A stretch of DNA of 64,000 nucleotides from Pedobacter segetis. GTDB lineage: Bacteria > Bacteroidota > Bacteroidia > Sphingobacteriales > Sphingobacteriaceae. The notes under the pieces are model-generated. The model was given only the letters and a program-made list of their open reading frames with translations. It ran no database searches and was not told where the DNA came from. Of this stretch, positions 2,975-58,122 are shown one piece after another. A program made the translations under genes and the position numbers. Position 1 is the first letter of the stretch. Each line of letters starts with the position of its first letter. The stretch covers positions 1 through 64,000 of the forward strand of contig NZ_JAEHFY010000007.1 in assembly GCF_016623585.1 (NCBI RefSeq), written 5' to 3'.

Positions 2975-5203
2975 ATGATAAAAAACTGGAAATCATATAG
3001 ACAGGTTGAAAGTAAAGATTGTGGACCAGCTTGCCTAAAAATGATTTTGAAGCACTATGGTAAAAATGTTGCTCTCCCGACTATAAGGGCTTATAGCGAA
3101 ACTACTCGAAATGGATCTAATTTAACTGGAATTAGTGATGCCGCAGAAAAATTAGGTCTCAGAACATTAGGTATATCAATCAATTTTGAGAAGTTTATTA
3201 AAGAAGCACCATTACCTAATATTGTTCATTGGGAAGGGAATCACTTTGTAGTAGTTTATAAAATTAAAAATAATAAGATTTTTGTTGCCGACCCTGCCCA
3301 AGGGTTAATAAAGTATGAACCAAAAGAATTTGTAAATAAGTGGATTGGCGAAAATTTAGCCGACACTACAATTAGAGGGGTTGTATTACTATTAGAGCCA
3401 ACGATTTCATTTAAACAGCAAGACGAAAATGAAAATGAAAAAAATTCCGGCTTTAAGTTTTTAGGGATATATTTTATTCGTTATAAGCGGTTCTTCTACC
3501 AGCTTTTTTTTGGTTTAATTGCAACAAGCCTTCTGCAAGTTTTAGTCCCTTTTTTAACTCAAAGTATTGTAGATGTTGGAATTAAAAATCAGGATATAAA
3601 TTTTATATATCTTATTCTTGCAGCGCAGTTATTTGTTTTTATTGGTAAATCAAGCGTTGAGATAATAGGAGGGTGGATTCTATTACACTTGAGTACTCGC
3701 ATTAATGTCTCCCTAATTTCTGATTTCTTTTTGAAATTGATGAAATTACCAATTAGTTATTTTGATACAAGATTGACAGGGGATATTTTACAACGTATAA
3801 ATGATCATCACCGTATAGAACAACTATTAACTTCAACTTCGTTAAGTACACTATTTTCAATGGTTAACTTGTTAATCTTTGGGGTTATCTTGGCTTGGTA
3901 TAATTTAACTATTTTCTTAATTTTTCTTATAGGTTTCTGTTTGTATTTTTTTTGGATTTTCATTTTTTTAAAGAGAAGGAAAAAGCTTGATTATCAAAGA
4001 TTTTCGCAAATCAGTGTAGAGCAAAGTAAAGTAATTGAAATTATTAGCGGGATGCAAGAAATTAAATTAAATAATGCTGAACAACAAAAACGCTGGGGTT
4101 GGGAATATCTGCAAGCAAAGCTGTTTCAATTGGAGGTAAAAAGTCTTCAGTTAGATCAAGCTCAATCAATTGGTTCAAATTTTATCAATGAGCTAAAAAA
4201 TGTAATAATTACAGTATGTGCAGCAACACTGGTTATTCACGGACAACTCACTTTGGGTATGTTATTAGCTATTAGTTATATTACAGGACAACTTAACGGA
4301 CCAATACTTCAGTTAGTTGGGTTTACTCACTCTTTACAAGATGCTCGGATTTCTTTAGATCGATTATCTGAAATCCATAATAAAGATGACGAGGAAATTG
4401 AAGATCAACCAAAAATATCTGAATTAAATACTAATCAAGATTTGATTTTTAACAATGTTTCTTTTCGTTATTTAAGCTCACCAGAATTTGTTCTGAAGAA
4501 CATTAGTTGCATTATCCCAGCAAAGAAGGTAACTGCTATTGTGGGTAGCAGTGGAAGTGGAAAAACAACTCTTTTGAAATTATTACTAAAATTTTATGTG
4601 CCCACAGAGGGTAATGTTTTAATTGGTAGTACTAACCTAATTAATGTTAGTCATAAATTTTGGCGTTCTTTATTTGGTGCTGTAATGCAAGAGGGCTTTA
4701 TCTTTAATGATACCATTGCTAAAAATATCGCAGTAGGTAAGGATGAAATTGATTATTTAAGGTTGTTTGAGGCAATTAAAGTTGCGAATATTCAAGAATT
4801 TGTAGAGAGCCTTCCCCAAAACTACAATACTAAAATAGGTTCCGAAGGAATAGGGATGAGTACAGGTCAAAAACAACGTTTAATAATAGCTAGAGCAGTA
4901 TATAAAAACCCTGATTTTTTATTTTTTGATGAAGCAACTTCTGCACTTGATGCAAATAACGAAAAAATCATTATGCAGAATCTAAATCAATTTTACAAAG
5001 GAAAAACATGTATTATAATTGCTCACAGATTAAGCACAGTTAAAAATGCAGACCAAATTTTAGTGATGAATGATGGTAAAATAATTGAGACAGGCACTCA
5101 CAAAACCCTAATTGCTCAAAACGCAAATTATTTTGAATTAGTTAAAAATCAATTACAATTAGAGAACCTAGCTTCTATCACAATAGAAACAAATAATGCC
5201 TGA
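2975..5203 (+). CDS. peptidase-domain (C39) ABC exporter of a peptide product
   Basis: This 742-aa inner-membrane protein cuts a double-glycine-type leader and exports the peptide. The N-terminal C39 peptidase has the oxyanion Gln10, catalytic Cys16 (QVESKDCGPACLKM), His in HFVVVYK near residue 90 and Asp in VADPAQG near 105. A type-1 exporter membrane domain follows (about 160-460). The ATPase domain has Walker A GSSGSGKTT near residues 523-531, Walker B FLFFDEATSALD and the H-loop IIAHRLST. The ABC signature reads MSTGQ rather than the usual LSGGQ. It overlaps the HlyD gene by 8 bases and follows the maturase genes, so it is the dedicated exporter of this locus. Confidence 0.92.
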   Translation: MIKNWKSYRQVESKDCGPACLKMILKHYGKNVALPTIRAYSETTRNGSNLTGISDAAEKLGLRTLGISINFEKFIKEAPLPNIVHWEGNHFVVVYKIKNNKIFVADPAQGLIKYEPKEFVNKWIGENLADTTIRGVVLLLEPTISFKQQDENENEKNSGFKFLGIYFIRYKRFFYQLFFGLIATSLLQVLVPFLTQSIVDVGIKNQDINFIYLILAAQLFVFIGKSSVEIIGGWILLHLSTRINVSLISDFFLKLMKLPISYFDTRLTGDILQRINDHHRIEQLLTSTSLSTLFSMVNLLIFGVILAWYNLTIFLIFLIGFCLYFFWIFIFLKRRKKLDYQRFSQISVEQSKVIEIISGMQEIKLNNAEQQKRWGWEYLQAKLFQLEVKSLQLDQAQSIGSNFINELKNVIITVCAATLVIHGQLTLGMLLAISYITGQLNGPILQLVGFTHSLQDARISLDRLSEIHNKDDEEIEDQPKISELNTNQDLIFNNVSFRYLSSPEFVLKNISCIIPAKKVTAIVGSSGSGKTTLLKLLLKFYVPTEGNVLIGSTNLINVSHKFWRSLFGAVMQEGFIFNDTIAKNIAVGKDEIDYLRLFEAIKVANIQEFVESLPQNYNTKIGSEGIGMSTGQKQRLIIARAVYKNPDFLFFDEATSALDANNEKIIMQNLNQFYKGKTCIIIAHRLSTVKNADQILVMNDGKIIETGTHKTLIAQNANYFELVKNQLQLENLASITIETNNA

Positions 5204-6482
5204 AAATAATAACTTATCTCAAATTCGGTCTGAAGAAATTCAAGATATTCTTTCTAAGATTCCAACCTGGATGATAAGATGGGGTAGTTTTCTTATTCTA
5301 GGATTAATTTGCTGCGTATTATTTTTGAGTTGGCTTATTAAATATCCAGATGTCATCAGTGGTAAAGCAGTTTTTACAACGTCAAATGAACCTGCCTACC
5401 TTTATCCAAAAATAAATGGAAATATTACTAATATATTTGTACGTGAAAATCAGTTTGTGAAAAAAGGGCAAATAATCTCTGAAATAGACAACAATGTGCA
5501 AAAAGAGCAGATTGACTATCTAAATAAAAAATTAATGGAGATTGATTCTTTTCTTAAAAAAGACGGTTCAACTAATTTGGAATTTGAAAAAGAAGATGTA
5601 ACCTTAGGATCAATTCAACAAGATTATAATATTTTAAAAAGTAATATATATGATTTTAAACAATCAAAGTCACTCTATTACGATGAATCAATTGGTTTAG
5701 TAAAAAAAAATCTAAATACATATAGTAGTTTAGTTAAAATAAATAAACAAAAATTATTAATAGCGGAAAAAGAGCTCAAGAATATATCGCAGATTTTTGA
5801 AAGGAATCAAAGACTTTATAAAGAAAAAGTAATCTCAAATTTAGAATTAATTACAAAAGAAAGTAATTTGAATCAGCAATTAACTATTGTTGAAGGTTTA
5901 AAACAAGATTTATTGGAAAATCAATTAGCTTTGAATGATCTAGAAGGTCAATATAAAAAGCAAATTTTTGAAAGAAGTGAATCAAATAGAAAGCTAAAAG
6001 CATCTATTCTTTCAGAAATGAAAATCGTTAGAAATTTTATTGAAAGTTGGACTAAAAGCTACACATTTTCCGCTCCTATAGATGGCAAAATTTTCTTTAC
6101 AGAAAAGTTTTCTGTGGGCTTCAATGCAACTACTGATAAAGCTCTATTTGTAATCATACCCAATGACAGTAAGTTATTGGCAAAAGTGAAAGTATTATCC
6201 ATAAAATATGGGAAAATTGAAAAGGGTCAGAAAGTAAGATTTGAATTAGATAATTATCCTTACCAGGAATACGGTTATATTTATGGTGTTGTAAAGGATA
6301 AAAGTACTGTACCAATAGCTAATGAGTATGAATTAATTGTTGACCTTAATAATGATCTTAAAACATCGTATGGTTTGAAATTAATATACAAACCTAATAT
6401 GTTAGGTTCCGCTAATATAATTGTAGAAAATCAGCGTCTTATCGAAAAATTACTATATTTCCTTAGGAGGTCTTATAATTAA
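5196..6482 (+). CDS. HlyD-family periplasmic adaptor of the peptide exporter
   Basis: This 428-aa protein is a membrane-fusion protein that links the C39 ABC exporter to an outer-membrane channel. One membrane helix lies near residues 27-50 after a short cytoplasmic start. It is followed by a split biotinyl-lipoyl-like domain (FVRENQFVKKGQIISEID, then YTFSAPIDGKIFF) that flanks a long lysine- and glutamate-rich coiled coil (about 105-280), and a C-terminal beta-barrel region. Its start lies within the ABC gene, which implies translational coupling. No TolC-type gene is present, so the channel must be encoded elsewhere. It is paralogous in organisation to the adaptor at 49.7 kb. Confidence 0.88.
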   Translation: MPENNNLSQIRSEEIQDILSKIPTWMIRWGSFLILGLICCVLFLSWLIKYPDVISGKAVFTTSNEPAYLYPKINGNITNIFVRENQFVKKGQIISEIDNNVQKEQIDYLNKKLMEIDSFLKKDGSTNLEFEKEDVTLGSIQQDYNILKSNIYDFKQSKSLYYDESIGLVKKNLNTYSSLVKINKQKLLIAEKELKNISQIFERNQRLYKEKVISNLELITKESNLNQQLTIVEGLKQDLLENQLALNDLEGQYKKQIFERSESNRKLKASILSEMKIVRNFIESWTKSYTFSAPIDGKIFFTEKFSVGFNATTDKALFVIIPNDSKLLAKVKVLSIKYGKIEKGQKVRFELDNYPYQEYGYIYGVVKDKSTVPIANEYELIVDLNNDLKTSYGLKLIYKPNMLGSANIIVENQRLIEKLLYFLRRSYN

Positions 6483-49672: not shown

Positions 49673-50992
49673 TTATTGCTCCAAAACATATTTTAAATTA
49701 TCAAATAACCGCTGTATAAACCTTCTGTCATTGGTAACGATTTCTGCAACGCCTTTGCTTTCAAATTTAAAATCCAGTTTTTTGCCATAGTTTGTTTTTA
49801 AACCATTTGGAAAATTTACGGTAACTAAATAGGTTTCAATATTTCCATTTTCTGCCTTTTCTAAATTCGTAGTTAAGGAGATTGATTCTATTTTGCCTCT
49901 TAAAGAACCGAATTCCATATACGGATAGTTATCTAATTTCACGATAACTTCTTGCCCTATTTTTAGCTTTCCAGAACCATTAGCAGGTATTAATACTTGC
50001 CCATATGTTTTGTCGTTAGTTGGAACAATGGTAAATACTTGTTCGCCACTCTGCACAAACTGATTCTCTGTGTAGAATTTCAGAAACTGCACTCTCCCTT
50101 TAAACGGAGCTTTAAAAACATATTTTTGCTCCCAGATTTTTATATTGTCTTTTAAATCATTATATGCAGAAATAAAAGCAATACGCAATTGGTTTCCTTT
50201 CTCAGGATTTTGGATACTCAACTCTTGGATTTTTCCAACTGTTTGCTGAGTTGCTTGTTTAGCCTGGATTAAATTATTGCTGGCACTTTGTACAGCATCT
50301 TTGCTGTTGAGGTAGTTGACTTCTGCCTTATCAAACTCCGACTCACTGATCACTTTTTGAATCAATAATATCGAATCTCTTAAATAGAATTTTTTAGCAT
50401 AGCCTAATGTTCTTTTGGACATCTCAAGTCTATTTGATAGCGTAGTAACAGCATCTTTTTGCTCTTTAATCAATGCGTTCAAATTTTCTTCTTGCTTATC
50501 GTAATAATGGTCTTGCTGGTAATTTAACAAATCTTGCAGCGCATTATAAAAAGCATAATATTTGATGTTCAGTTCTCCAATCGAAAAATCATGCGGAAGG
50601 TTTTCTTTAATTATTTTGATGTCAGATTTAATGGGGTTATACAGGTCTAACAGACTGTCAATTTTTGTTACTGCAAAGGGAGAAGTTGCGTTTTCTATAT
50701 AAGCAATAATTTGCCCCTCTTTAACCTCTTCCATAGAAGAAACATTAAGCAGTTTTAGTTTACCGTTACTATTAGCTACCAATTTAATTGGAGACACATT
50801 GGAATTGATGGTAATTTGCCCTTGCAATATATCTGGATATTTGGCCAGCCAGCCAAAAGTGAGCAATAATATAAAAATGAAGGTAACGATAAGCCCTATC
50901 CATAATCCAAATTTTGTCGGCATCCGCTCAATAATATGCTGCACCTGTTCTGTACGTTGGTTCTGATGAAATTTTGATGAATCGTTTTCCAT
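49673..50992 (-). CDS. HlyD-family adaptor of the second C39 exporter
   Basis: The 439-aa protein has one membrane helix (about residues 32-51, LWIGLIVTFIFILLLTFGW), a lipoyl-like motif (LLNVSSMEEVKEGQIIAYIE), a long coiled-coil region (about 130-275) and a beta-barrel end with VFKAPFKGRVQFL. It lies 45 bp after its ABC gene on the same strand. It would bridge the exporter to an outer-membrane channel encoded elsewhere. It is a paralogue of the adaptor at 5196-6482. Confidence 0.88.
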   Translation of the reverse strand: MENDSSKFHQNQRTEQVQHIIERMPTKFGLWIGLIVTFIFILLLTFGWLAKYPDILQGQITINSNVSPIKLVANSNGKLKLLNVSSMEEVKEGQIIAYIENATSPFAVTKIDSLLDLYNPIKSDIKIIKENLPHDFSIGELNIKYYAFYNALQDLLNYQQDHYYDKQEENLNALIKEQKDAVTTLSNRLEMSKRTLGYAKKFYLRDSILLIQKVISESEFDKAEVNYLNSKDAVQSASNNLIQAKQATQQTVGKIQELSIQNPEKGNQLRIAFISAYNDLKDNIKIWEQKYVFKAPFKGRVQFLKFYTENQFVQSGEQVFTIVPTNDKTYGQVLIPANGSGKLKIGQEVIVKLDNYPYMEFGSLRGKIESISLTTNLEKAENGNIETYLVTVNFPNGLKTNYGKKLDFKFESKGVAEIVTNDRRFIQRLFDNLKYVLEQ

Positions 50993-51037
50993 TATTTTGC
51001 AGGAATTTTATAAGTTTTTTATGCTTTATGGTAAATT

Positions 51038-53296
51038 CTATGACAAGGCTAAAGGAGTGTTTGGGGAAACTGCAGAGGTTAAATCCAATTGAGATTGAAC
51101 CAACTGAAAGTATCTGCCTTTTTTCTCCATTAAAGTTTGATGGTTGCCAATTTCTACAATCATACCGTTTTGCATTACTACAATCTGGTCTGCTTTTTTA
51201 ATGGTGCTTAATCTGTGGGCAACCACTATAACGGTTTTTTCTTTAAATACCTTGTCTAATGCCTGAGTGATTTTTTGTTCGTTTATAGTATCCAAGCTAT
51301 TAGTAGCTTCATCAAAAAAAAGATAATCTGGGTCTTTATATAATGCTCTTGCAATTAAAATCCTCTGTTTTTGTCCACCACTTAAACCACGCCCTTGTTC
51401 GCCCATTTTGGTTTGGTAACCTAATGGCAAAGCTTCTATCTCTGCGGAAATGTTAGCGGTATCCAAAGCTTTTTTTAGTTTGGCATAATCAATTTTTTCA
51501 TCATCTAAAACCACATTGTTAAGTATGGTATCGTTAAAAATTTTACCGTCCTGCATAACTGCGCCACATTTGTTTCGCCATTGGCGTAAACTGATATTGT
51601 TAACGTTCATATTGCCCATCTGTATTTCTCCGTAGGAAGGCTTATATAAACGGAGTAATAATTTTAGTAAAGTTGATTTACCGCTTCCGCTATCGCCAAC
51701 AATTGCGGTAACTTTACCTTCTGGAATCATCAACCTTATTCCTTTCAAAATTAAAGCTCCTGCTGGCGTATATTGAAAACTTACGTTATTTAATATTAAG
51801 CTTTTGTTTTCTGGTAATTGTATAGGGTTATCCCCAACACTTTGATGCTCATCTTCTAATTGATGGATTTCATTTAAGCGTAAAAAAGAAATTTTTGCAA
51901 ACTGAAAAGAGGTAATGAACTGAATAAATTGCACCACAGGTGCGTTAAGCATCCCGATAATAAATTGGGTAGATATCATTATCCCAAAAGTCATTTCCCC
52001 GTTTATTACCGCTTTGGCACAAAAAAAGGTAATAAACAAATTTTTTAAGTTGTCTATAAACTGTGCACCTAGGTTTTGAATATTGTTTACGTTTAAAACC
52101 CGCAAATTTACTTTGTACAAACGGGCTTGTATATCCTCCCATTTCCAACGTTTTTGCTTTTCGTAATTGTTAATCTTAATATCCTGTATGCTCCCAATAG
52201 TTTCTACCCAATAGCTTTGGTTTTTACTTACCAATTCAAAATATTCCCAATCCAGTTTTTTTCTTAATCTTAAAAAAGCCAGTACCCATAACACGTATAA
52301 TATACTCCCAGTTAAAAATATAGCAAAAATGATGGTATTATAGATGAGCAGGATAACACCAAATACCAAAAATGTTAAGGTAGAAAACACCATGTTTAAG
52401 GAATTGTTCATAATAAAGCTCCTTATCCGCTCATGGTCTTGCGCCCTTTGCAAAATATCCCCAGTCATTTTGTTCTCGAAAAAAGTGATGGGTAACAGCA
52501 TTATTTTTATAAGATAGTCAGAAATAAGGGCAATGTTTATACGGGCGGTAATGTGCATCAAAATCCAATCTCGCACCAAGTTGCTCAATAATATGCTTAC
52601 ATATATGGCTACGTTGGCAATCAATAAAATATTGATAAAATCTATATCATGGGTTTGTATGCCCACATCTATTACCGCTTTGCTAATGAACGGCAAAAAG
52701 CCTTGCAAAATGGTAACTATCAGCATTACCATAAACAAGTTGACAAAGCTTTTTTTATAGGGCGTAAAATAATTCAAAAAGTGGGTAAAGGTTTTTTGCT
52801 GGTTATTTTTTTCTTCTGCTTGCTTTTCATAAAAATCTGCCTGTGGGTTTAGTGCCAATAAAATTCCCTTTGCTTTATTGGTGGCTGTATTTTCATGTTT
52901 TATCCATTTCTCACAAAAATCATCTGCTTCAAATTTTAACAGGCCTTTAGCTGGGTCTGCTACATAAATTAAACCGTCTGTATCTCCGTTTTTTTTAAAA
53001 GTAGGCTTGGTTTTATAAACTACTACAAAATGGCTGTTATCCCAATGGGCAATGGCGGGTAATGGTATTTTTGTTAACAGCTCCTCTTTTGTGCACTTTA
53101 AGGAAAGCGAACGCAAGCCAATGTTTTCTGCTGCATGGCTAAGGTCTAAAAAGGATACGCCTTCCTTGGTAATGCCACATTTATCCCTTAAAAACTGGAG
53201 GGTATAAAATTTACCATAAAACTTGGCTATCATTTTTAAACAGGCTGGCCCACAGTCCATCATGTCCATTTGCCTATCTAAAGGGAATGTTTTCAC
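51038..53296 (-). CDS. peptidase-domain (C39) ABC exporter for a double-glycine peptide
   Basis: This 752-aa protein cleaves Gly-Gly leaders and exports the peptide. The C39 domain has Gln9, catalytic Cys15 (QMDMMDCGPACLKM), His in HFVVVYK near residue 88 and Asp in VADPAKG near 110. The membrane domain spans about 170-460. The ATPase has Walker A GDSGSGKST near residue 532, canonical signature LSGGQ, Walker B YLFFDEATNSLD and H-loop VVAHRLST. It is divergent from the precursor gene at 53480, sharing a 183-bp promoter region. Confidence 0.93.
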   Translation of the reverse strand: MKTFPLDRQMDMMDCGPACLKMIAKFYGKFYTLQFLRDKCGITKEGVSFLDLSHAAENIGLRSLSLKCTKEELLTKIPLPAIAHWDNSHFVVVYKTKPTFKKNGDTDGLIYVADPAKGLLKFEADDFCEKWIKHENTATNKAKGILLALNPQADFYEKQAEEKNNQQKTFTHFLNYFTPYKKSFVNLFMVMLIVTILQGFLPFISKAVIDVGIQTHDIDFINILLIANVAIYVSILLSNLVRDWILMHITARINIALISDYLIKIMLLPITFFENKMTGDILQRAQDHERIRSFIMNNSLNMVFSTLTFLVFGVILLIYNTIIFAIFLTGSILYVLWVLAFLRLRKKLDWEYFELVSKNQSYWVETIGSIQDIKINNYEKQKRWKWEDIQARLYKVNLRVLNVNNIQNLGAQFIDNLKNLFITFFCAKAVINGEMTFGIMISTQFIIGMLNAPVVQFIQFITSFQFAKISFLRLNEIHQLEDEHQSVGDNPIQLPENKSLILNNVSFQYTPAGALILKGIRLMIPEGKVTAIVGDSGSGKSTLLKLLLRLYKPSYGEIQMGNMNVNNISLRQWRNKCGAVMQDGKIFNDTILNNVVLDDEKIDYAKLKKALDTANISAEIEALPLGYQTKMGEQGRGLSGGQKQRILIARALYKDPDYLFFDEATNSLDTINEQKITQALDKVFKEKTVIVVAHRLSTIKKADQIVVMQNGMIVEIGNHQTLMEKKGRYFQLVQSQLDLTSAVSPNTPLALS

Positions 53297-53397
53297 AGAT
53301 GATTAAATTTTTTTAAATAATTTGGAAAATAAAAAATTCTTATTTAATTTTAACGTAAATATAGATGAAAAATGAAGTTAATATTAATCTAAGAGCA

Positions 53398-53412
53398 TTT
53401 TTTTTTTTTTTT
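53398..53412. repeat. 15-base homopolymeric T tract in the divergent promoter region
   Basis: A run of 15 T lies between the exporter gene and the precursor gene. Slipped-strand mispairing at such a tract could change promoter spacing and turn expression on or off. Whether it does so is not shown. Confidence 0.7.
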
Positions 53413-53479
53413 GAGTTAACATTAGCGTTTTTAGACTATTTAAACCAAAATATAAATTAATCCATTAACAATTAAATTT

Positions 53480-54019
53480 ATGAAAAGCAAAGCTAAATTG
53501 GCATTTGAAATGCTGGAGCAAGAAATTGAATTGATGAGTAGTGGCGAATTGGAAAATTTTATTGGTGGGAGTGGGATATATATAGATGGAGCAATAATAG
53601 ATATAGACCAATATGGACACACTGTAGTTAGTTATGATGGTGGATGCAGTTATAGTAACTTAGGTGGTAATGTGACTTTTTATGGGAGTAGTAATACGGG
53701 TGGGTCTTATGATGGGTGGGATGCAATGAGCTTAATGATAGCCTCGGGAGGCACAGCGGCAACTTGGGCTCAATATGCTGCTGAAGTAGGTCTAGGTAGT
53801 GATGCCGCAGCGGGCTTCATTTCTGCAAGTCGATATTTTGTATATGCTGACATAGGATATAACGGATACGAATTATTAAGTGGAAATGGGAGTTGGGAGG
53901 ACGCAGGTCAAATAGCTTTAGCAGGAGCGGTTATAGCTTCAGGCGGTTCTCTCGCTTTTGTTCTAGGTACAGGATTAGCAGGTTGGGAGCTTTATGAATA
54001 TTATAGAGACCATCAATAG
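53480..54019 (+). CDS. secreted peptide precursor with double-glycine leader (bacteriocin- or RaxX-like)
   Basis: The 179-residue protein has a leader (MKSKAKLAFEMLEQEIELMS, then SGELENFIGG) ending in Gly29-Gly30, the site expected for the C39 exporter encoded next door. The mature part (about 149 aa) has a Tyr/Asp-rich start (Tyr34, Tyr45 and Tyr52 near Asp) and a Gly/Ser/Ala-rich middle. Its C-terminal half is hydrophobic and Ala/Gly-rich (for example IALAGAVIASGGSLAFVLG), able to form membrane helices as in large pore-forming microcins. It has one Cys only, so lanthionine or disulfide types are unlikely. An antimicrobial or signalling role is inferred. Confidence 0.75.
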   Translation: MKSKAKLAFEMLEQEIELMSSGELENFIGGSGIYIDGAIIDIDQYGHTVVSYDGGCSYSNLGGNVTFYGSSNTGGSYDGWDAMSLMIASGGTAATWAQYAAEVGLGSDAAAGFISASRYFVYADIGYNGYELLSGNGSWEDAGQIALAGAVIASGGSLAFVLGTGLAGWELYEYYRDHQ

Positions 54020-54025
54020 TTTATT

Positions 54026-54439
54026 ATGACGATAAAAAAATATTTATTGATATGTTATTTTGTGTTTTATAATTACTATAGAAAAAAAGATAACAAATAT
54101 GATAAAGAAAACAAAAACACTTGGTTGAGTGCTTTGATTGTTACAATGCTTCCCTTTACTATCGTCAATTTAACTTTATTTTTCTTTTTATTAAACTACC
54201 TTGGAATTTTTATTCCAGGAATTATTCAAGTTTTAATTTTAATATTTCTATCACATAGGATATTTTCCAATTTACTATTTAAAGTTTATGAGGTAAATAA
54301 ATACGAAGGTGTTTCCCAACAAACAGAGATTGAACTTAACAAATATTCTATATTTTACCCTATATGTTTTTATGCTATTAGTATTATATTTTTTTTGATT
54401 GCAACCTATTTAAGAAATGGTTATATTATTAAAAGTTAA
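54026..54439 (+). CDS. small membrane protein, immunity candidate
   Basis: The 137-aa protein has about three hydrophobic segments (for example IVTMLPFTIVNLTLFFFLLN and YSIFYPICFYAISIIFFLIA) and a lysine-rich start. It begins 6 bp after the precursor gene, so it is co-transcribed. Small membrane proteins in this position are often self-immunity factors. I know no family and the role is an inference. Confidence 0.6.
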   Translation: MTIKKYLLICYFVFYNYYRKKDNKYDKENKNTWLSALIVTMLPFTIVNLTLFFFLLNYLGIFIPGIIQVLILIFLSHRIFSNLLFKVYEVNKYEGVSQQTEIELNKYSIFYPICFYAISIIFFLIATYLRNGYIIKS

Positions 54440-54544
54440 GGTCATAGAATATTTTTATAATAAAATTTCGTAATCGATCAACAGGACAAGTTCACTATAT
54501 TGAGGGATACAGGGTTGCTATGGGAAGGAAAAGGGATTTTTTTT

Positions 54545-54733
54545 ATGAGTATATCAACTTACTGCGGGGCAGGATGGGATGCAATAAATGTGATTCGAAC
54601 TGGTGCGTCATATAGTCCTAATGGATTATTGGTGGGAGGTCTGCTTGCAATTATGGATCCTGTTTACCAGCAATAGCTGAATAATTACGTATTTAATTCG
54701 GGTGCTTACATGGGAGCTTCTGATCATCAATAA
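54545..54733 (+). pseudogene. decayed second precursor-like gene
   Basis: A frame from ATG 54545 reads CGAGWDAINVIRTGAS and LLVGGLLAIMD, is stopped by TAG at 54674-54676, and continues in the same frame to SGAYMGASDHQ and TAA at 54731-54733. The GWDA motif and the C-terminal ...DHQ match the intact precursor at 53480 (GWDAMSL, YRDHQ). No leader is recognisable. Upstream (54482-54544) the frame is also open but has no precursor features. It looks like a broken paralogue; the rest of 54440-54735 holds no other gene. Confidence 0.55.
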
Positions 54734-54735
54734 AA

Positions 54736-55116
54736 ATGAAGTTACATGCTAAAAAAGTTGACAATTATCACTATATATGGATTTTGTCAACTTTAATTAT
54801 CTCAATAGTAAATTATTCCCCATTAGAGTTAGGGTATTATTTTTATTTGAATTTAATACCTTTGATATTAGCAACAATCTATTTTAGAATTAAGGGTAAA
54901 AATATTTTTTCTACCAACAATAATTGGAGGATTTTAGATATTATAATTTTTATTATTTCACTTAATTTAATTCCAAAATTTTTCAATTTTATTTTCCCTA
55001 ATATCTATATTAATAAGATTGATAGGATTACTTTCAATATAATATTTATTTTAGTATATATAGTATTTGTTAATAGATTTATTGTAAAAAAGCCGATCAA
55101 CTATAACTTAATTTAG
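54736..55116 (+). CDS. small membrane protein, second immunity candidate
   Basis: The 126-aa protein has about four hydrophobic segments (IWILSTLIISIVNYS, YYFYLNLIPLILATIYF, ILDIIIFIISLNLIP, FNIIFILVYIVFVNRF) and a lysine-rich start. It begins 2 bp after the decayed precursor. Its placement repeats the precursor-plus-membrane-protein pair at 53480-54439. It may protect against the lost second peptide or still serve the intact one. Confidence 0.6.
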   Translation: MKLHAKKVDNYHYIWILSTLIISIVNYSPLELGYYFYLNLIPLILATIYFRIKGKNIFSTNNNWRILDIIIFIISLNLIPKFFNFIFPNIYINKIDRITFNIIFILVYIVFVNRFIVKKPINYNLI

Positions 55117-55153
55117 TTTGATAGTACATCTAGTAAAAAAAAACTCTAAATCA

Positions 55154-56113
55154 ATGCCTCAAACTACTGTACTAATTCCCACGTATAATTGTGGTAAATA
55201 TATTTTAGAAACCATTAATAGCATACTACAACAGTCTTATCAAGATTATGAAATATTAATAATTGATGACGGAAGCACAGATAAAACCTCAGAAATAGTA
55301 TCTAGTATAAAAGATAACCGTATAGTTTATTTAAAGCAAAGCAAAAATTTAGGTATAGTTAAGGCATTGAACCTAGGGATCAAAATCGCTAATGGAAAAT
55401 ATATAGCCCGGATAGATGCAGACGATATTATGTTGGGAGACAGGCTGCAAAAACAAATTAATTTTTTAGAGCAAAACTTAGATTATGGAATGGTTGGTGG
55501 AGGTTGTCAAGTAATAAATGAAAAGGGTGTATTTCAGAGAAAACTAGAAATAACTACAGAAAACGATATCTTAAATATTGGCCTTTTATTTCGGAATCAA
55601 TTTACACATTCTGCAATAACTATGCGTACACAGTTAGCTAAAAAATTGAAATATCAGCAAAAATACATCTATTGTGAGGATTTTGATTTGTGGACACGTT
55701 TTGCAGAGATTTCTAAAATTGCCAATCTACCTTATTATTTTGTTTCTTATAGGTGGTACTCAGATAACACTTGTCATACAAAACAAAAGGAGTTAAGAAC
55801 AGCTTTGGCATTACTATTCGCCAGAGAGCTGGATAAATTAAAAATTAACTACAGCCCAGAAGAATTGATGATGCAAATGGCCGTAAATTTTGGCTTGGGT
55901 TATAAATTGTTTGTACAAAAAAACAAGCTTCAACAATTAAAAGATTGGCATAATAAGATATTTGAATCAGAAGTATTGAAAAATAGATTTGACGCAAAAG
56001 CTATTACCCATTTCAGGAATAATGTTTTGCCTCAAATAGCAGGATATCCCGTATTAAAAAAGGGAGACCATATAGAAAATAATCAGTTAGAAAATTATTT
56101 CAGTAATTTATAA
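55154..56113 (+). CDS. family 2 glycosyltransferase
   Basis: The 319-aa GT-A enzyme has the N-terminal VLIPTYNCGKYILETINSIL, the nucleotide-binding IIDDGSTDKT near residues 37-46 and the metal-binding RIDADD near 86-91. CEDFDLWTRFAEI near 178-190 is the usual acceptor-side motif. I start at ATG 55154 (MPQTTVLIPTYNC); a TTG at 55118 would add a poorly conserved 12 residues. There is no membrane segment, so it acts in the cytosol. The next gene starts directly after its stop. Substrate unknown: a peptide (as in glycocins) or a surface glycan. Confidence 0.88.
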   Translation: MPQTTVLIPTYNCGKYILETINSILQQSYQDYEILIIDDGSTDKTSEIVSSIKDNRIVYLKQSKNLGIVKALNLGIKIANGKYIARIDADDIMLGDRLQKQINFLEQNLDYGMVGGGCQVINEKGVFQRKLEITTENDILNIGLLFRNQFTHSAITMRTQLAKKLKYQQKYIYCEDFDLWTRFAEISKIANLPYYFVSYRWYSDNTCHTKQKELRTALALLFARELDKLKINYSPEELMMQMAVNFGLGYKLFVQKNKLQQLKDWHNKIFESEVLKNRFDAKAITHFRNNVLPQIAGYPVLKKGDHIENNQLENYFSNL

Positions 56114-57256
56114 GTGGTTAAAGTTAAAGCTATTTGGTTTTTCGGTTTATCCGCTTCGGGCAAAAGCACCGTCTCAAAAAAACTGTTTGAAGATTTTACA
56201 AAGAACAACATTAAATGCGCTCTTTTAGATGCTGATGAAATCAGGAACGGATTAAACAAAGACTTGGGTTTTTCTATTGAAGGTAGGCAGGAAAATATAA
56301 GAAGAATTGCAGAGTTATGTAAGTTGTTAATCAGTAATAATATCATCCCCATAGTTTCTGCAATTACTCCTTTACATATCCATCGAGATTTAGCGATTCA
56401 AATTATTGGTAAGGATAATTTAGTTTTCATATACACTAAATGCCCATTAATAATATGCCAAGCCCGTGACCCTAAAGGTTTGTATAAAAAAGCAAAAGCA
56501 GGGGAAATTAAAAATTTCACTGGTATTTCAGATGTATTTGAAGAACCAAATGAAACTATACAATTTGTAGAAACCCAATCAAAGGCCATTGAAGAAACTT
56601 TTAGAGATGTTCAAGCTATATTAAAAAAAGAGTTTACCAAATCCAATTCAAACTATTCCATTGCACCATATATCAAACATCAATGCTTATTTGTGCATAT
56701 ACCTAAATCTGGGGGAATATCTATAAATAGAAGTCTATTTTGTAATTTAGGCACTGGGCATACACCTATTTGGCAATTTCAAAAACAGCTTGGCGAACAA
56801 GCGTTTAATAATTTCTTTAAATTCACTTTTGTAAGAAACCCTTGGGATAGGTTGGTATCCGCTTTTTTGTTTTTAAAAAAAGGAGGACTTAATGAAGCGG
56901 ATAAACTATGGAGCGAGAATAATTTAAAGGATTATCATGATTTTGAATCTTTTGTGAAGAATTGGGTAAACGAGAAAAACATCTTCAGCTATGTACATTT
57001 TATACCCCAACATTATTTTTTGTGCGTAAACGGAAGCAAACCTTTGGTAGATTTTATTGGTAAATATGAAAATATTGAAATCGATTTTAAATATGTAGCA
57101 GATAAATTAAATATAAAAGCACCACTTCAAAAATTAAACGTAAACGAAACTAAAAATCATTATTCTAATTATTATAATGAGGAAACAATATCGATTGTTA
57201 AAGATGTTTACAAGAGAGATATTGAATTGTTTGATTATAGTTTTGATTATTCATAA
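56114..57256 (+). CDS. APS kinase fused to a sulfotransferase
   Basis: This 380-aa protein joins two enzymes of one pathway. Residues 1-175 are an APS kinase, which phosphorylates adenylyl sulfate to PAPS: P-loop GLSASGKST (11-19), DADEIRNGL (39-47), LGFS...GRQENIRR and ARDPKGLYKKAKAGEI. Residues about 190-380 are a sulfotransferase of the Sulfotransfer_2 type: 5'-phosphate loop VHIPKSGG near 194-201 and 3'-phosphate motif FVRNPWDRLVSAF near 238-250. PAPS could be used without release. Translation starts at GTG directly after the glycosyltransferase stop. It is cytosolic; acceptor unknown. Confidence 0.9.
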   Translation: MVKVKAIWFFGLSASGKSTVSKKLFEDFTKNNIKCALLDADEIRNGLNKDLGFSIEGRQENIRRIAELCKLLISNNIIPIVSAITPLHIHRDLAIQIIGKDNLVFIYTKCPLIICQARDPKGLYKKAKAGEIKNFTGISDVFEEPNETIQFVETQSKAIEETFRDVQAILKKEFTKSNSNYSIAPYIKHQCLFVHIPKSGGISINRSLFCNLGTGHTPIWQFQKQLGEQAFNNFFKFTFVRNPWDRLVSAFLFLKKGGLNEADKLWSENNLKDYHDFESFVKNWVNEKNIFSYVHFIPQHYFLCVNGSKPLVDFIGKYENIEIDFKYVADKLNIKAPLQKLNVNETKNHYSNYYNEETISIVKDVYKRDIELFDYSFDYS

Positions 57257-58122
57257 TGTTTAATCCAACATTTATAGAATCAGAGATAGAAAAAAACCAG
57301 CAAGCAATAATTGCACTTTCAAAGGAAGCGCCAAATATTTTATTGGAACCCATAACTATTGGGGGAGGAAACATAGAACATTATTATCATTTTATTTTTG
57401 ATTTAATGTTGCCCTTAAGTTTATTAATCAAAGCAACCAATCCAAATGTTGTTTTCCATCTTCATCAATTCGGCTTGTTTACAAATTATGCGGTAGAAAT
57501 TTTTAAAAACCGAATACATATAATTCAAACAAATACTAACCTCCTTGAAGGAAAGAAAATGAATTTATTGGGGATGAATCCTAATAACATAAATATCCTA
57601 AAATTCCCTTATCAAATCTTAAAGCAGACTATTTTTTCTGCACTTAAAATTAAATCGTCAAACAAACCCAATAAAATATTGCTTATAGAACGACTTCCAC
57701 CGGACCCCTATTTTTTAAACGACGCTAAAATAAAAGGTTCTGGTACTTCCAGAAGATCTATACAGAACCATCATGAGCTAAAAGAGCTTCTCAAATTAAA
57801 AATAAAGCCATCTTACGTTTTCGAAAATATACAGTTAGAGAAAATGTCTTTTAAAGAACAAATTCAAGCATTTGAGTCTTCTGTGATTGTTATAGGTCAA
57901 CATGGAGCAGGTTTGGCTAATATTCTTTGGATGCAAGAGAAATCAACGGTGGTTGAGTTCGGTTTTGAAAATAAAACCCATTTTGAAAGGTTAAGTGTTG
58001 TAAAAAATCATGATTACTTTGGGATTAATCACATAGAAAGCCACATTACAATTGATTGTTCAGAATTTTTCAATTTGTTCTCTAACGATTTTATCATAAC
58101 TAAATATTTTTTAAACGATTGA
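57256..58122 (+). CDS. GT61-type (DUF563) glycosyltransferase
   Basis: The 288-aa protein has the GT61 features NIEHYYHFIFDLMLPLS near residues 38-54 and IVIGQHGAGLANILWM near 213-228. It is cytosolic, with no signal or membrane segment. Its ATG shares one base with the stop of the APS kinase-sulfotransferase gene (TAATG), so the two are translated together. A role in building the same sulfated product is likely. GT61 enzymes act on glycans or glycoproteins; the substrate here is unknown. Confidence 0.82.
   Translation: MFNPTFIESEIEKNQQAIIALSKEAPNILLEPITIGGGNIEHYYHFIFDLMLPLSLLIKATNPNVVFHLHQFGLFTNYAVEIFKNRIHIIQTNTNLLEGKKMNLLGMNPNNINILKFPYQILKQTIFSALKIKSSNKPNKILLIERLPPDPYFLNDAKIKGSGTSRRSIQNHHELKELLKLKIKPSYVFENIQLEKMSFKEQIQAFESSVIVIGQHGAGLANILWMQEKSTVVEFGFENKTHFERLSVVKNHDYFGINHIESHITIDCSEFFNLFSNDFIITKYFLND

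What the first reader, a model, noticed from the sequence alone, without database searches (positions are those of the whole stretch)
49673..58122. Candidate rax-like sulfated-peptide (or sulfated glycan) system with built-in PAPS synthesis
Seen: a C39 exporter and HlyD adaptor are divergent from a double-glycine precursor (mature Tyr34, Tyr45 and Tyr52 lie near Asp residues). Downstream in one direction are small membrane proteins, GT2, an APS kinase-sulfotransferase fusion and GT61; the last three genes are coupled with 0 to -1 bp spacing. Known: the Xanthomonas rax system has the same functions in separate genes: RaxB (C39 exporter), RaxA (adaptor), RaxX (Gly-Gly peptide, sulfated on Tyr), RaxST (sulfotransferase) and RaxP/RaxQ (PAPS synthesis). 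Inference: this locus may make a sulfated, perhaps glycosylated, exported peptide in a Bacteroidota. The weaker alternative is that the GT/sulfotransferase genes build a surface glycan unrelated to the precursor.
Basis: partly seen in the sequence, partly recalled or inferred. Interest (0 to 1): 0.85.

Follow-up and report, generated by a model that had tools for sequence, protein, structure and literature searches.

The report
Exported toxin-like protein with sulfation-glycosylation kit
A Bacteroidota bacterium carries a gene set that appears to export a bacteria-killing protein and to decorate it first with sugars and sulfate, using an enzyme fusion found in no other genome examined; the sugar-adding enzyme belongs to a lineage that sits beside this kind of exporter in related species, so decorating exported toxins may be an undescribed habit of the family.

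Summary
The genes are as described, with small corrections. The precursor is not RaxX-like: it is a 179-aa double-glycine protein whose C-terminal domain recurs in related genomes beside the same exporter, followed by an immunity-like membrane gene. The GT2 is not an ordinary capsule gene: in a tree of 31 homologues, all nine rows with a C39 exporter nearby fall in one 14-row part; the 17 rows outside it have none, nor do eight hits from other families. The sulfotransferase half is carbohydrate-type (nearest solved structure heparan sulfate 6-O-sulfotransferase, not tyrosylprotein sulfotransferase). None of its 80 closest relatives is fused to APS kinase or beside a C39 exporter. The fusion carries the genome's only APS kinase, and the genome's sulfate reductase looks like an APS reductase, so PAPS seems made only for this locus. 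Best reading: a secreted antibacterial protein carrying a sulfated glycan. No modification has been shown, sulfotransferase and GT61 are tied to the cargo only by operon coupling, and the window's precursor lacks the Ser/Thr-Ser/Thr-Gly motif enriched in GT-linked cargo. New variant of a known kind (glycocin-like logic, whole-protein cargo, added sulfation).

The parts
49673..50992 (-). HlyD-type periplasmic adaptor of the exporter
   Evidence: Pfam HlyD_3 1.5e-14; partner of C39 in related loci
51038..53296 (-). C39 peptidase-containing ABC exporter, clade A (59-82% identity to relatives that carry large Gly-Gly cargo)
   Evidence: Peptidase_C39 9.7e-30, ABC_tran, ABC_membrane; family search
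53480..54019 (+). Gly-Gly precursor, 179 aa: leader MKSKAKLAFEMLEQEIELMSSGELENFIGG, then a Gly/Ser/Thr/Tyr-rich spacer, then a hydrophobic Gly/Ala-rich C-terminal domain; probable antibacterial protein
   Evidence: homologous C-terminal domain in L081-L086 and L153; leader profile E 8e-14, the window leader being one of the seeds
54026..54439 (+). 137-aa membrane protein, probable cognate immunity protein (mem1)
   Evidence: same place in related loci; alignment z about 5 against the L081 and L084 partners
54463..54730 (+). probable remnant of a second, frame-broken toxin gene (includes ORF 54500-54676); weak evidence
   Evidence: stops in every frame; piece STGQVHYI matches NTGRVHYV in the G066 precursor, 1.2% of shuffles as good; two other pieces do not match
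54736..55116 (+). 126-aa membrane protein, orphan immunity-like (mem2)
   Evidence: alignment z = 7.0, 0 of 1000 shuffles, against the 114-aa gene after the G066 precursor
55154..56113 (+). GT2 glycosyltransferase of the exporter-linked lineage (ORF opens at TTG 55118; ATG 55154 preferred)
   Evidence: Pfam Glycos_transf_2 2.4e-37; tree; alignment A3
56114..56632 (+). APS kinase domain of the fusion
   Evidence: PF01583 5e-48; TIGR00455 above its cut-off; only APS kinase in the genome
56633..57256 (+). Sulfotransfer_2 (carbohydrate-type) domain of the fusion, both PAPS-binding motifs intact (FVHIPKSGG, FTFVRNPWDR)
   Evidence: PF03567 6e-20; alignment A1; profile hit to heparan sulfate 6-O-sulfotransferase 8.3e-5
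57256..58122 (+). GT61 glycosyltransferase
   Evidence: PF04577 1.2e-21; no close relative in 240 family genomes

Best explanation
The locus makes, protects against and exports an antibacterial protein of 149 residues after leader removal, and decorates it with a short sulfated glycan before export. Steps: the Gly-Gly leader marks the precursor; in the cytoplasm GT2 adds a sugar to the Ser/Thr/Gly/Tyr-rich spacer; GT61 adds a further sugar; the APS kinase half turns APS into PAPS and the sulfotransferase half sulfates the sugar; the C39 exporter cuts off the leader and with HlyD exports the product. Mem1 is its immunity protein; mem2 and the decayed stretch are left from a second toxin pair. 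Shown by sequence: the gene set, the leader, the precursor family with its paired membrane gene, the lineage-level tie between GT2 and the exporter, the carbohydrate-type sulfotransferase, the single APS kinase. Inferred: that the precursor is the acceptor, that all three enzymes act on it, the order of steps, and antibacterial activity.
For: GT2 tree: all 9 rows with a C39 exporter nearby fall in one 14-row part (3 of the other 5 are fragments or contig ends, 2 are intact without exporter); 0 of 17 rows in the other part; 0 of 500 label shuffles as clustered. Eight profile hits from other families have none either. The nearest intact GT2 (G217, 52%) sits beside an exporter whose Gly-Gly cargo is a lysozyme-domain protein, an expected antibacterial enzyme. 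Locus L087 has the same divergent layout with a GT4-GT2 fusion and a nucleotidyltransferase in place of the window's cassette. Cargo in GT2-lineage loci is rich in [ST][ST]G (31 observed, 9.5 expected) and cargo of GT-free loci is not (10 against 12.1). Precursor/immunity pairing recurs and is repeated in tandem in L086. Sulfotransferase is carbohydrate-type, as expected if it acts on a GT product. Only APS kinase in the genome; CysD and CysH are present on contig 44 and CysH has the CC...CxxC...C cysteines of APS reductases, so PAPS is not otherwise needed.
Against: No modification has been observed. The window's own precursor has no [ST][ST]G, and that motif was chosen after looking at the data. 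The sulfotransferase and GT61 have no exporter-linked relative; they could be passengers from a glycan locus. Many related exporter loci have no such GT (16 of 35 clade-A loci do). The precursor's fold model is poor (pLDDT 43), so its toxin nature rests on the family pattern only. Fold comparison of the GT2 gives only generic GT-A hits.
Confidence: 0.5

Rival explanations
1. The GT2 glycosylates the exported protein, but the APS kinase-sulfotransferase and GT61 act on something else (a surface glycan or lipid) and are passengers in the operon.
For: Sulfotransferase relatives lie in capsule and polysaccharide loci or alone, 0 of 80 beside a C39 exporter; GT61 has no exporter-linked relative.
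Against: The three genes are joined at 0 and -1 bp downstream of the toxin/immunity genes; no recognisable polymerase, flippase or initiating transferase is among the genes read around them.
Confidence: 0.2
2. The GT/sulfotransferase cassette modifies the producer's own surface glycan so that the toxin no longer binds it: a second layer of self-immunity.
For: The cassette follows directly on an immunity-like gene (mem2), which ends 37 bp before GT2.
Against: The GT2 lineage goes with very different cargo (lysozyme, hydrophobic toxin, unknown enzymes), which would hardly share one receptor; cargo composition differs with GT presence.
Confidence: 0.13
3. A Rax-like system: the sulfotransferase sulfates Tyr34/45/52 of the precursor directly and the GTs are secondary.
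For: Gene functions match (C39 exporter, adaptor, Gly-Gly peptide, PAPS synthesis, sulfotransferase); Tyr34, Tyr45 and Tyr52 lie near Asp.
Against: Carbohydrate-type sulfotransferase (PF03567; nearest solved structure heparan sulfate 6-O-sulfotransferase), whereas RaxST is modelled on TPST2; precursor size and domain differ; GTs are tightly coupled.
Confidence: 0.08
4. The GT/sulfotransferase genes build an unrelated surface glycan next to a toxin locus by accident.
For: GT2, Sulfotransfer_2 and GT61 are families common in polysaccharide loci.
Against: The GT2 lineage is tied to C39 exporters, while GT2s outside it are not.
Confidence: 0.09

Closest known systems
Glycocins (sublancin, glycocin F, thermoglycocin)
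   Same: Glycosyltransferase gene beside a peptidase-containing ABC transporter and a leader-bearing precursor; antibacterial product (PMC12457901)
   Different: Glycocins are small peptides with nested disulfides; here the precursor is 179 aa with a single Cys and an immunity-like membrane gene, plus GT61 and a sulfation enzyme
Cdz contact-dependent bacteriocin of Caulobacter
   Same: Type I secretion of a hydrophobic Gly/Ala-rich toxin with a small membrane immunity protein (PMC5380434)
   Different: The window cargo has no GxxxG repeats, has a Gly-Gly leader and is accompanied by GTs and a sulfotransferase
Xanthomonas rax system (RaxX, RaxST, RaxA, RaxB, RaxP/RaxQ)
   Same: C39 exporter, adaptor, Gly-Gly precursor, sulfotransferase and PAPS synthesis in one pathway (PMC6637879)
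   Different: Carbohydrate-type sulfotransferase fused to APS kinase, GTs present, large toxin-like cargo with immunity-like genes
Stand-alone Sulfotransfer_2 enzymes of glycan loci in bacteria
   Same: Closest relatives of the sulfotransferase domain (up to 51% identity)
   Different: Those are not fused to APS kinase and not beside a C39 exporter

Membership tests
Rax sulfated-peptide system | C39 exporter plus adaptor with an adjacent Gly-Gly precursor | tested here: met
Rax sulfated-peptide system | tyrosylprotein-type sulfotransferase | tested here: not met
   PF03567; best solved-structure profile hits are heparan sulfate 6-O- and 2-O-sulfotransferase, no TPST; RaxST is modelled on TPST2
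Rax sulfated-peptide system | short (about 60 aa) RaxX-like precursor | tested here: not met
   179 aa with a conserved hydrophobic C-terminal domain; RaxX itself was not aligned
Rax sulfated-peptide system | sulfate on tyrosine | not testable with these tools
   needs mass spectrometry
Glycocin | glycosyltransferase beside a C39 peptidase-transporter and a leader-bearing precursor | tested here: met
Glycocin | small core peptide with two nested disulfides | tested here: not met
   149-aa mature part with one Cys
Glycocin | sugar on Ser, Thr or Cys of the core | not testable with these tools
   needs mass spectrometry
Cdz-type secreted toxin | type I exporter and small membrane immunity gene | tested here: met
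   (immunity inferred by position and homology)
Cdz-type secreted toxin | extended GxxxGxxxG glycine zipper | tested here: not met
   C-terminal domain has GxxxA spacing but no GxxxG (read from the sequence)
Exporter-linked GT2 lineage (defined in this work) | groups with GT2s that lie next to clade-A C39 exporters | tested here: met
   tree: window with G217 and two remnants, support 98/95

The most novel reading that the evidence does not exclude
A family-wide, undescribed secretion strategy in which large Gly-Gly proteins with interchangeable toxin domains (lysozyme, membrane-active, unknown) are glycosylated by a dedicated GT2 lineage and sent out through a C39/HlyD exporter, with one lineage adding sulfate by a self-sufficient APS kinase-sulfotransferase: a sulfoglycosylated bacterial toxin.
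Probability: 0.35. Interest if true: 0.82.

Novelty: new variant of a known kind. Interest (0 to 1): 0.62.

Why it matters
A sulfated glycan on a secreted bacterial toxin would be new as far as the open papers searched here show, and the GT2-exporter linkage turns a single odd locus into a testable family with interchangeable cargo. Large Gly-Gly cargo with dedicated glycosylation would extend the glycocin idea from small peptides to whole proteins. The fusion is a one-gene route to sulfation in a cell that otherwise seems to make no PAPS, which is also a useful biotechnological part.

Tried and rejected
The search for related loci with the fusion alone found nothing, and a viral-contig scan with the sulfotransferase part found nothing. 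APS kinase-sulfotransferase fusions were sought in 300 family genomes, 395 phylum genomes, plasmids and phages: none; the rhizobial hits that span both halves are adjacent separate genes. A search of the GT2 profile over other families gave generic GT2s; the eight best lie in loci without a C39 exporter. A TonB-box-like motif (E[VI]x[IV]) in many cargo spacers: 11 of 30 cargo against 3.6 expected from shuffles, but not significant against other ORFs of the same loci (Fisher 0.12); kept as a lead only. The precursor structure was too poor to search. GT61 gave no informative relatives. A Bacteroidota promoter consensus before the precursor was not found. The count that clade-A loci carry more GTs than clade-B loci (16/35 against 2/19) is partly circular, because the GT panel came from clade-A loci, and is not used as evidence.

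Full report
WHAT IS THERE. Reading right from a divergent junction at 53.3-53.5 kb: Gly-Gly precursor (179 aa), a 137-aa membrane protein 6 bp later, a 297-bp stretch with stops in all frames, a 126-aa membrane protein, GT2, an APS kinase-sulfotransferase fusion (380 aa) and GT61; the last three joined at 0 and -1 bp. Reading left: the C39 peptidase-ABC exporter and the HlyD adaptor. The catalytic motifs of the fusion look intact: the kinase P-loop GLSASGKST, and both PAPS-binding motifs of the sulfotransferase, whose invariant residues are kept. GT2 probably starts at ATG 55154.

THE PRECURSOR IS A TOXIN-LIKE PROTEIN. Searching 200 family genomes with the precursor found relatives of its C-terminal half. 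They are 198-417 aa proteins, mostly with a clear Gly-Gly leader, beside a C39/HlyD pair 68-74% identical to the window's exporter where the contig allows. They share a conserved hydrophobic C-terminal domain ending in a WELYE-like motif (alignment A2). Each is followed by a 133-149 aa membrane gene; in L086 the pair is repeated in tandem. The window's mem1 aligns with those genes well above shuffles (z about 5 for L081 and L084), and mem2 aligns with the gene after the G066 precursor (z 7.0, none of 1000 shuffles). This is the pattern of toxin/immunity pairs, and mem2 with the decayed stretch is what an orphan immunity gene after a dead toxin looks like, though the identity of the decayed stretch is weakly supported. 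Function is inferred; no toxin activity is shown. The predicted structure is helical but of low confidence.

THE GT2 IS LINKED TO THE EXPORTER. A GT2 search of 300 family genomes returned a group above the generic background, many of them GT4-GT2 fusions of about 720 aa. Up to 20 kb around the best 30 hits were read. Nine rows including the window have a clade-A C39 exporter 0.5-4.4 kb away (window, G217, G136, G151, G192, G259, G142, G282, G066). In an IQ-TREE tree of 31 rows these nine all lie in one 14-row part (0 of 500 label shuffles as clustered). The other five rows of that part are a fragment in G217, a broken copy in G180 beside toxin-like fragments, one at a contig end in G250 beside a Gly-Gly cargo, and two intact genes without exporter (G202, and G231, which is sister to five exporter-linked rows). 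None of the 17 rows in the other part has a C39 exporter; those read gene by gene lie in glycosyltransferase-rich polysaccharide loci, and eight profile hits from other families also have none. Fisher's exact test gives 3e-7 for 9/0 against 0/17 and 1e-5 for 9/3 against 0/19; related rows are not independent, so these are guides. This goes against the 'unrelated surface glycan' reading of GT2. Neighbouring modification genes vary: GT32, GT14, a second GT2, GT4, nucleotidyltransferase, LanC-like, erythromycin-esterase-like. Cargo varies too: the G217 cargo is a Gly-Gly leader on a lysozyme domain (Phage_lysozyme 5e-42). Cargo of GT2-lineage loci is enriched in [ST][ST]G over its own shuffles (31 against 9.5) and GT-free cargo is not (10 against 12.1; Mann-Whitney 0.003). 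That motif was chosen post hoc and the window's precursor has none, so it supports the family more than this locus.

THE SULFATION MODULE. The fusion's kinase half is an ordinary APS kinase (nearest solved: human PAPS synthetase kinase domain). The sulfotransferase half is carbohydrate-type: Pfam Sulfotransfer_2, and a profile of 13 relatives finds heparan sulfate 6-O-sulfotransferase first (8e-5), 2-O-sulfotransferase next (0.09, weak), and no tyrosylprotein sulfotransferase. RaxST, by contrast, is modelled on TPST2 (PMC6637879). Of the 80 best relatives kept from a scan of 84,980 species none has an APS kinase fused and none is beside a C39 exporter; no fusion was found in 300 family genomes, 395 phylum genomes, plasmids or phages. 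The genome's only APS kinase is this fusion. Its sulfate assimilation genes (CysD and a CysH with CC...CxxC...C cysteines, contig 44) look like the APS-reductase route, which needs no PAPS (established knowledge of the two reductase types). A cell that otherwise seems to make no PAPS thus carries a one-gene PAPS-plus-sulfotransferase unit in this operon.

MOST LIKELY MECHANISM. GT2 primes a sugar on the spacer of the precursor, GT61 extends it, the fusion sulfates it, and the exporter clips the leader and secretes the product, with mem1 protecting the producer. The link of GT2 to exported cargo is supported at lineage level; that sulfotransferase and GT61 act on the same cargo is inferred from gene coupling only. 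The main rivals are passenger action on a surface glycan, and surface modification as extra immunity.

KNOWN SYSTEMS. It works most like a glycocin (GT + C39 transporter + leader precursor) but fails the small-peptide and disulfide criteria; it shares the toxin/immunity/type I export plan of Cdz but not its glycine zippers; it shares a part list with Rax but fails the sulfotransferase-type and precursor tests. Eight text searches of open papers did not turn up a described sulfated or glycosylated large Gly-Gly protein system in Bacteroidota; the library does not hold most subscription journals, so this is weak evidence of novelty.

Noticed in passing
window 2975-6482 (+): A second C39 peptidase-ABC exporter (46% identity to the first) followed by an adaptor-like gene and preceded by three small genes in a low-GC stretch (26-29%): another peptide-export locus in the same window.
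   Followed up: no
window 53398-53412: A run of 15 T between the divergent exporter and precursor genes, about 70 bp before the precursor start; a candidate phase-variable tract.
   Followed up: no
cargo proteins in L081, L083, L084, L139, L153: Many Gly-Gly cargo spacers carry a short E-V-x-V/I motif (e.g. LDEVVIVG, IEEVVVIG) resembling TonB boxes, which would suggest TonB-dependent entry; enriched over shuffles but not significantly over other ORFs.
   Followed up: partly
L132 11085-11663 (-): A Gly-Gly leader in front of a complete phage-type lysozyme domain, beside a C39 exporter and a GT2-GT2 protein: an apparent C39-exported cell-wall hydrolase.
   Followed up: partly
L140 4737-5639, L164 3831-4823: LanC-like proteins next to GTs and C39 exporters with large Gly-Gly cargo; role unknown.
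   Followed up: no
L148-L150: Three genomes with about 81% identical exporters share a Gly-Gly protein of about 307 aa, a GT4-like gene and a 1054-aa gene: a separate, conserved sub-type.
   Followed up: no
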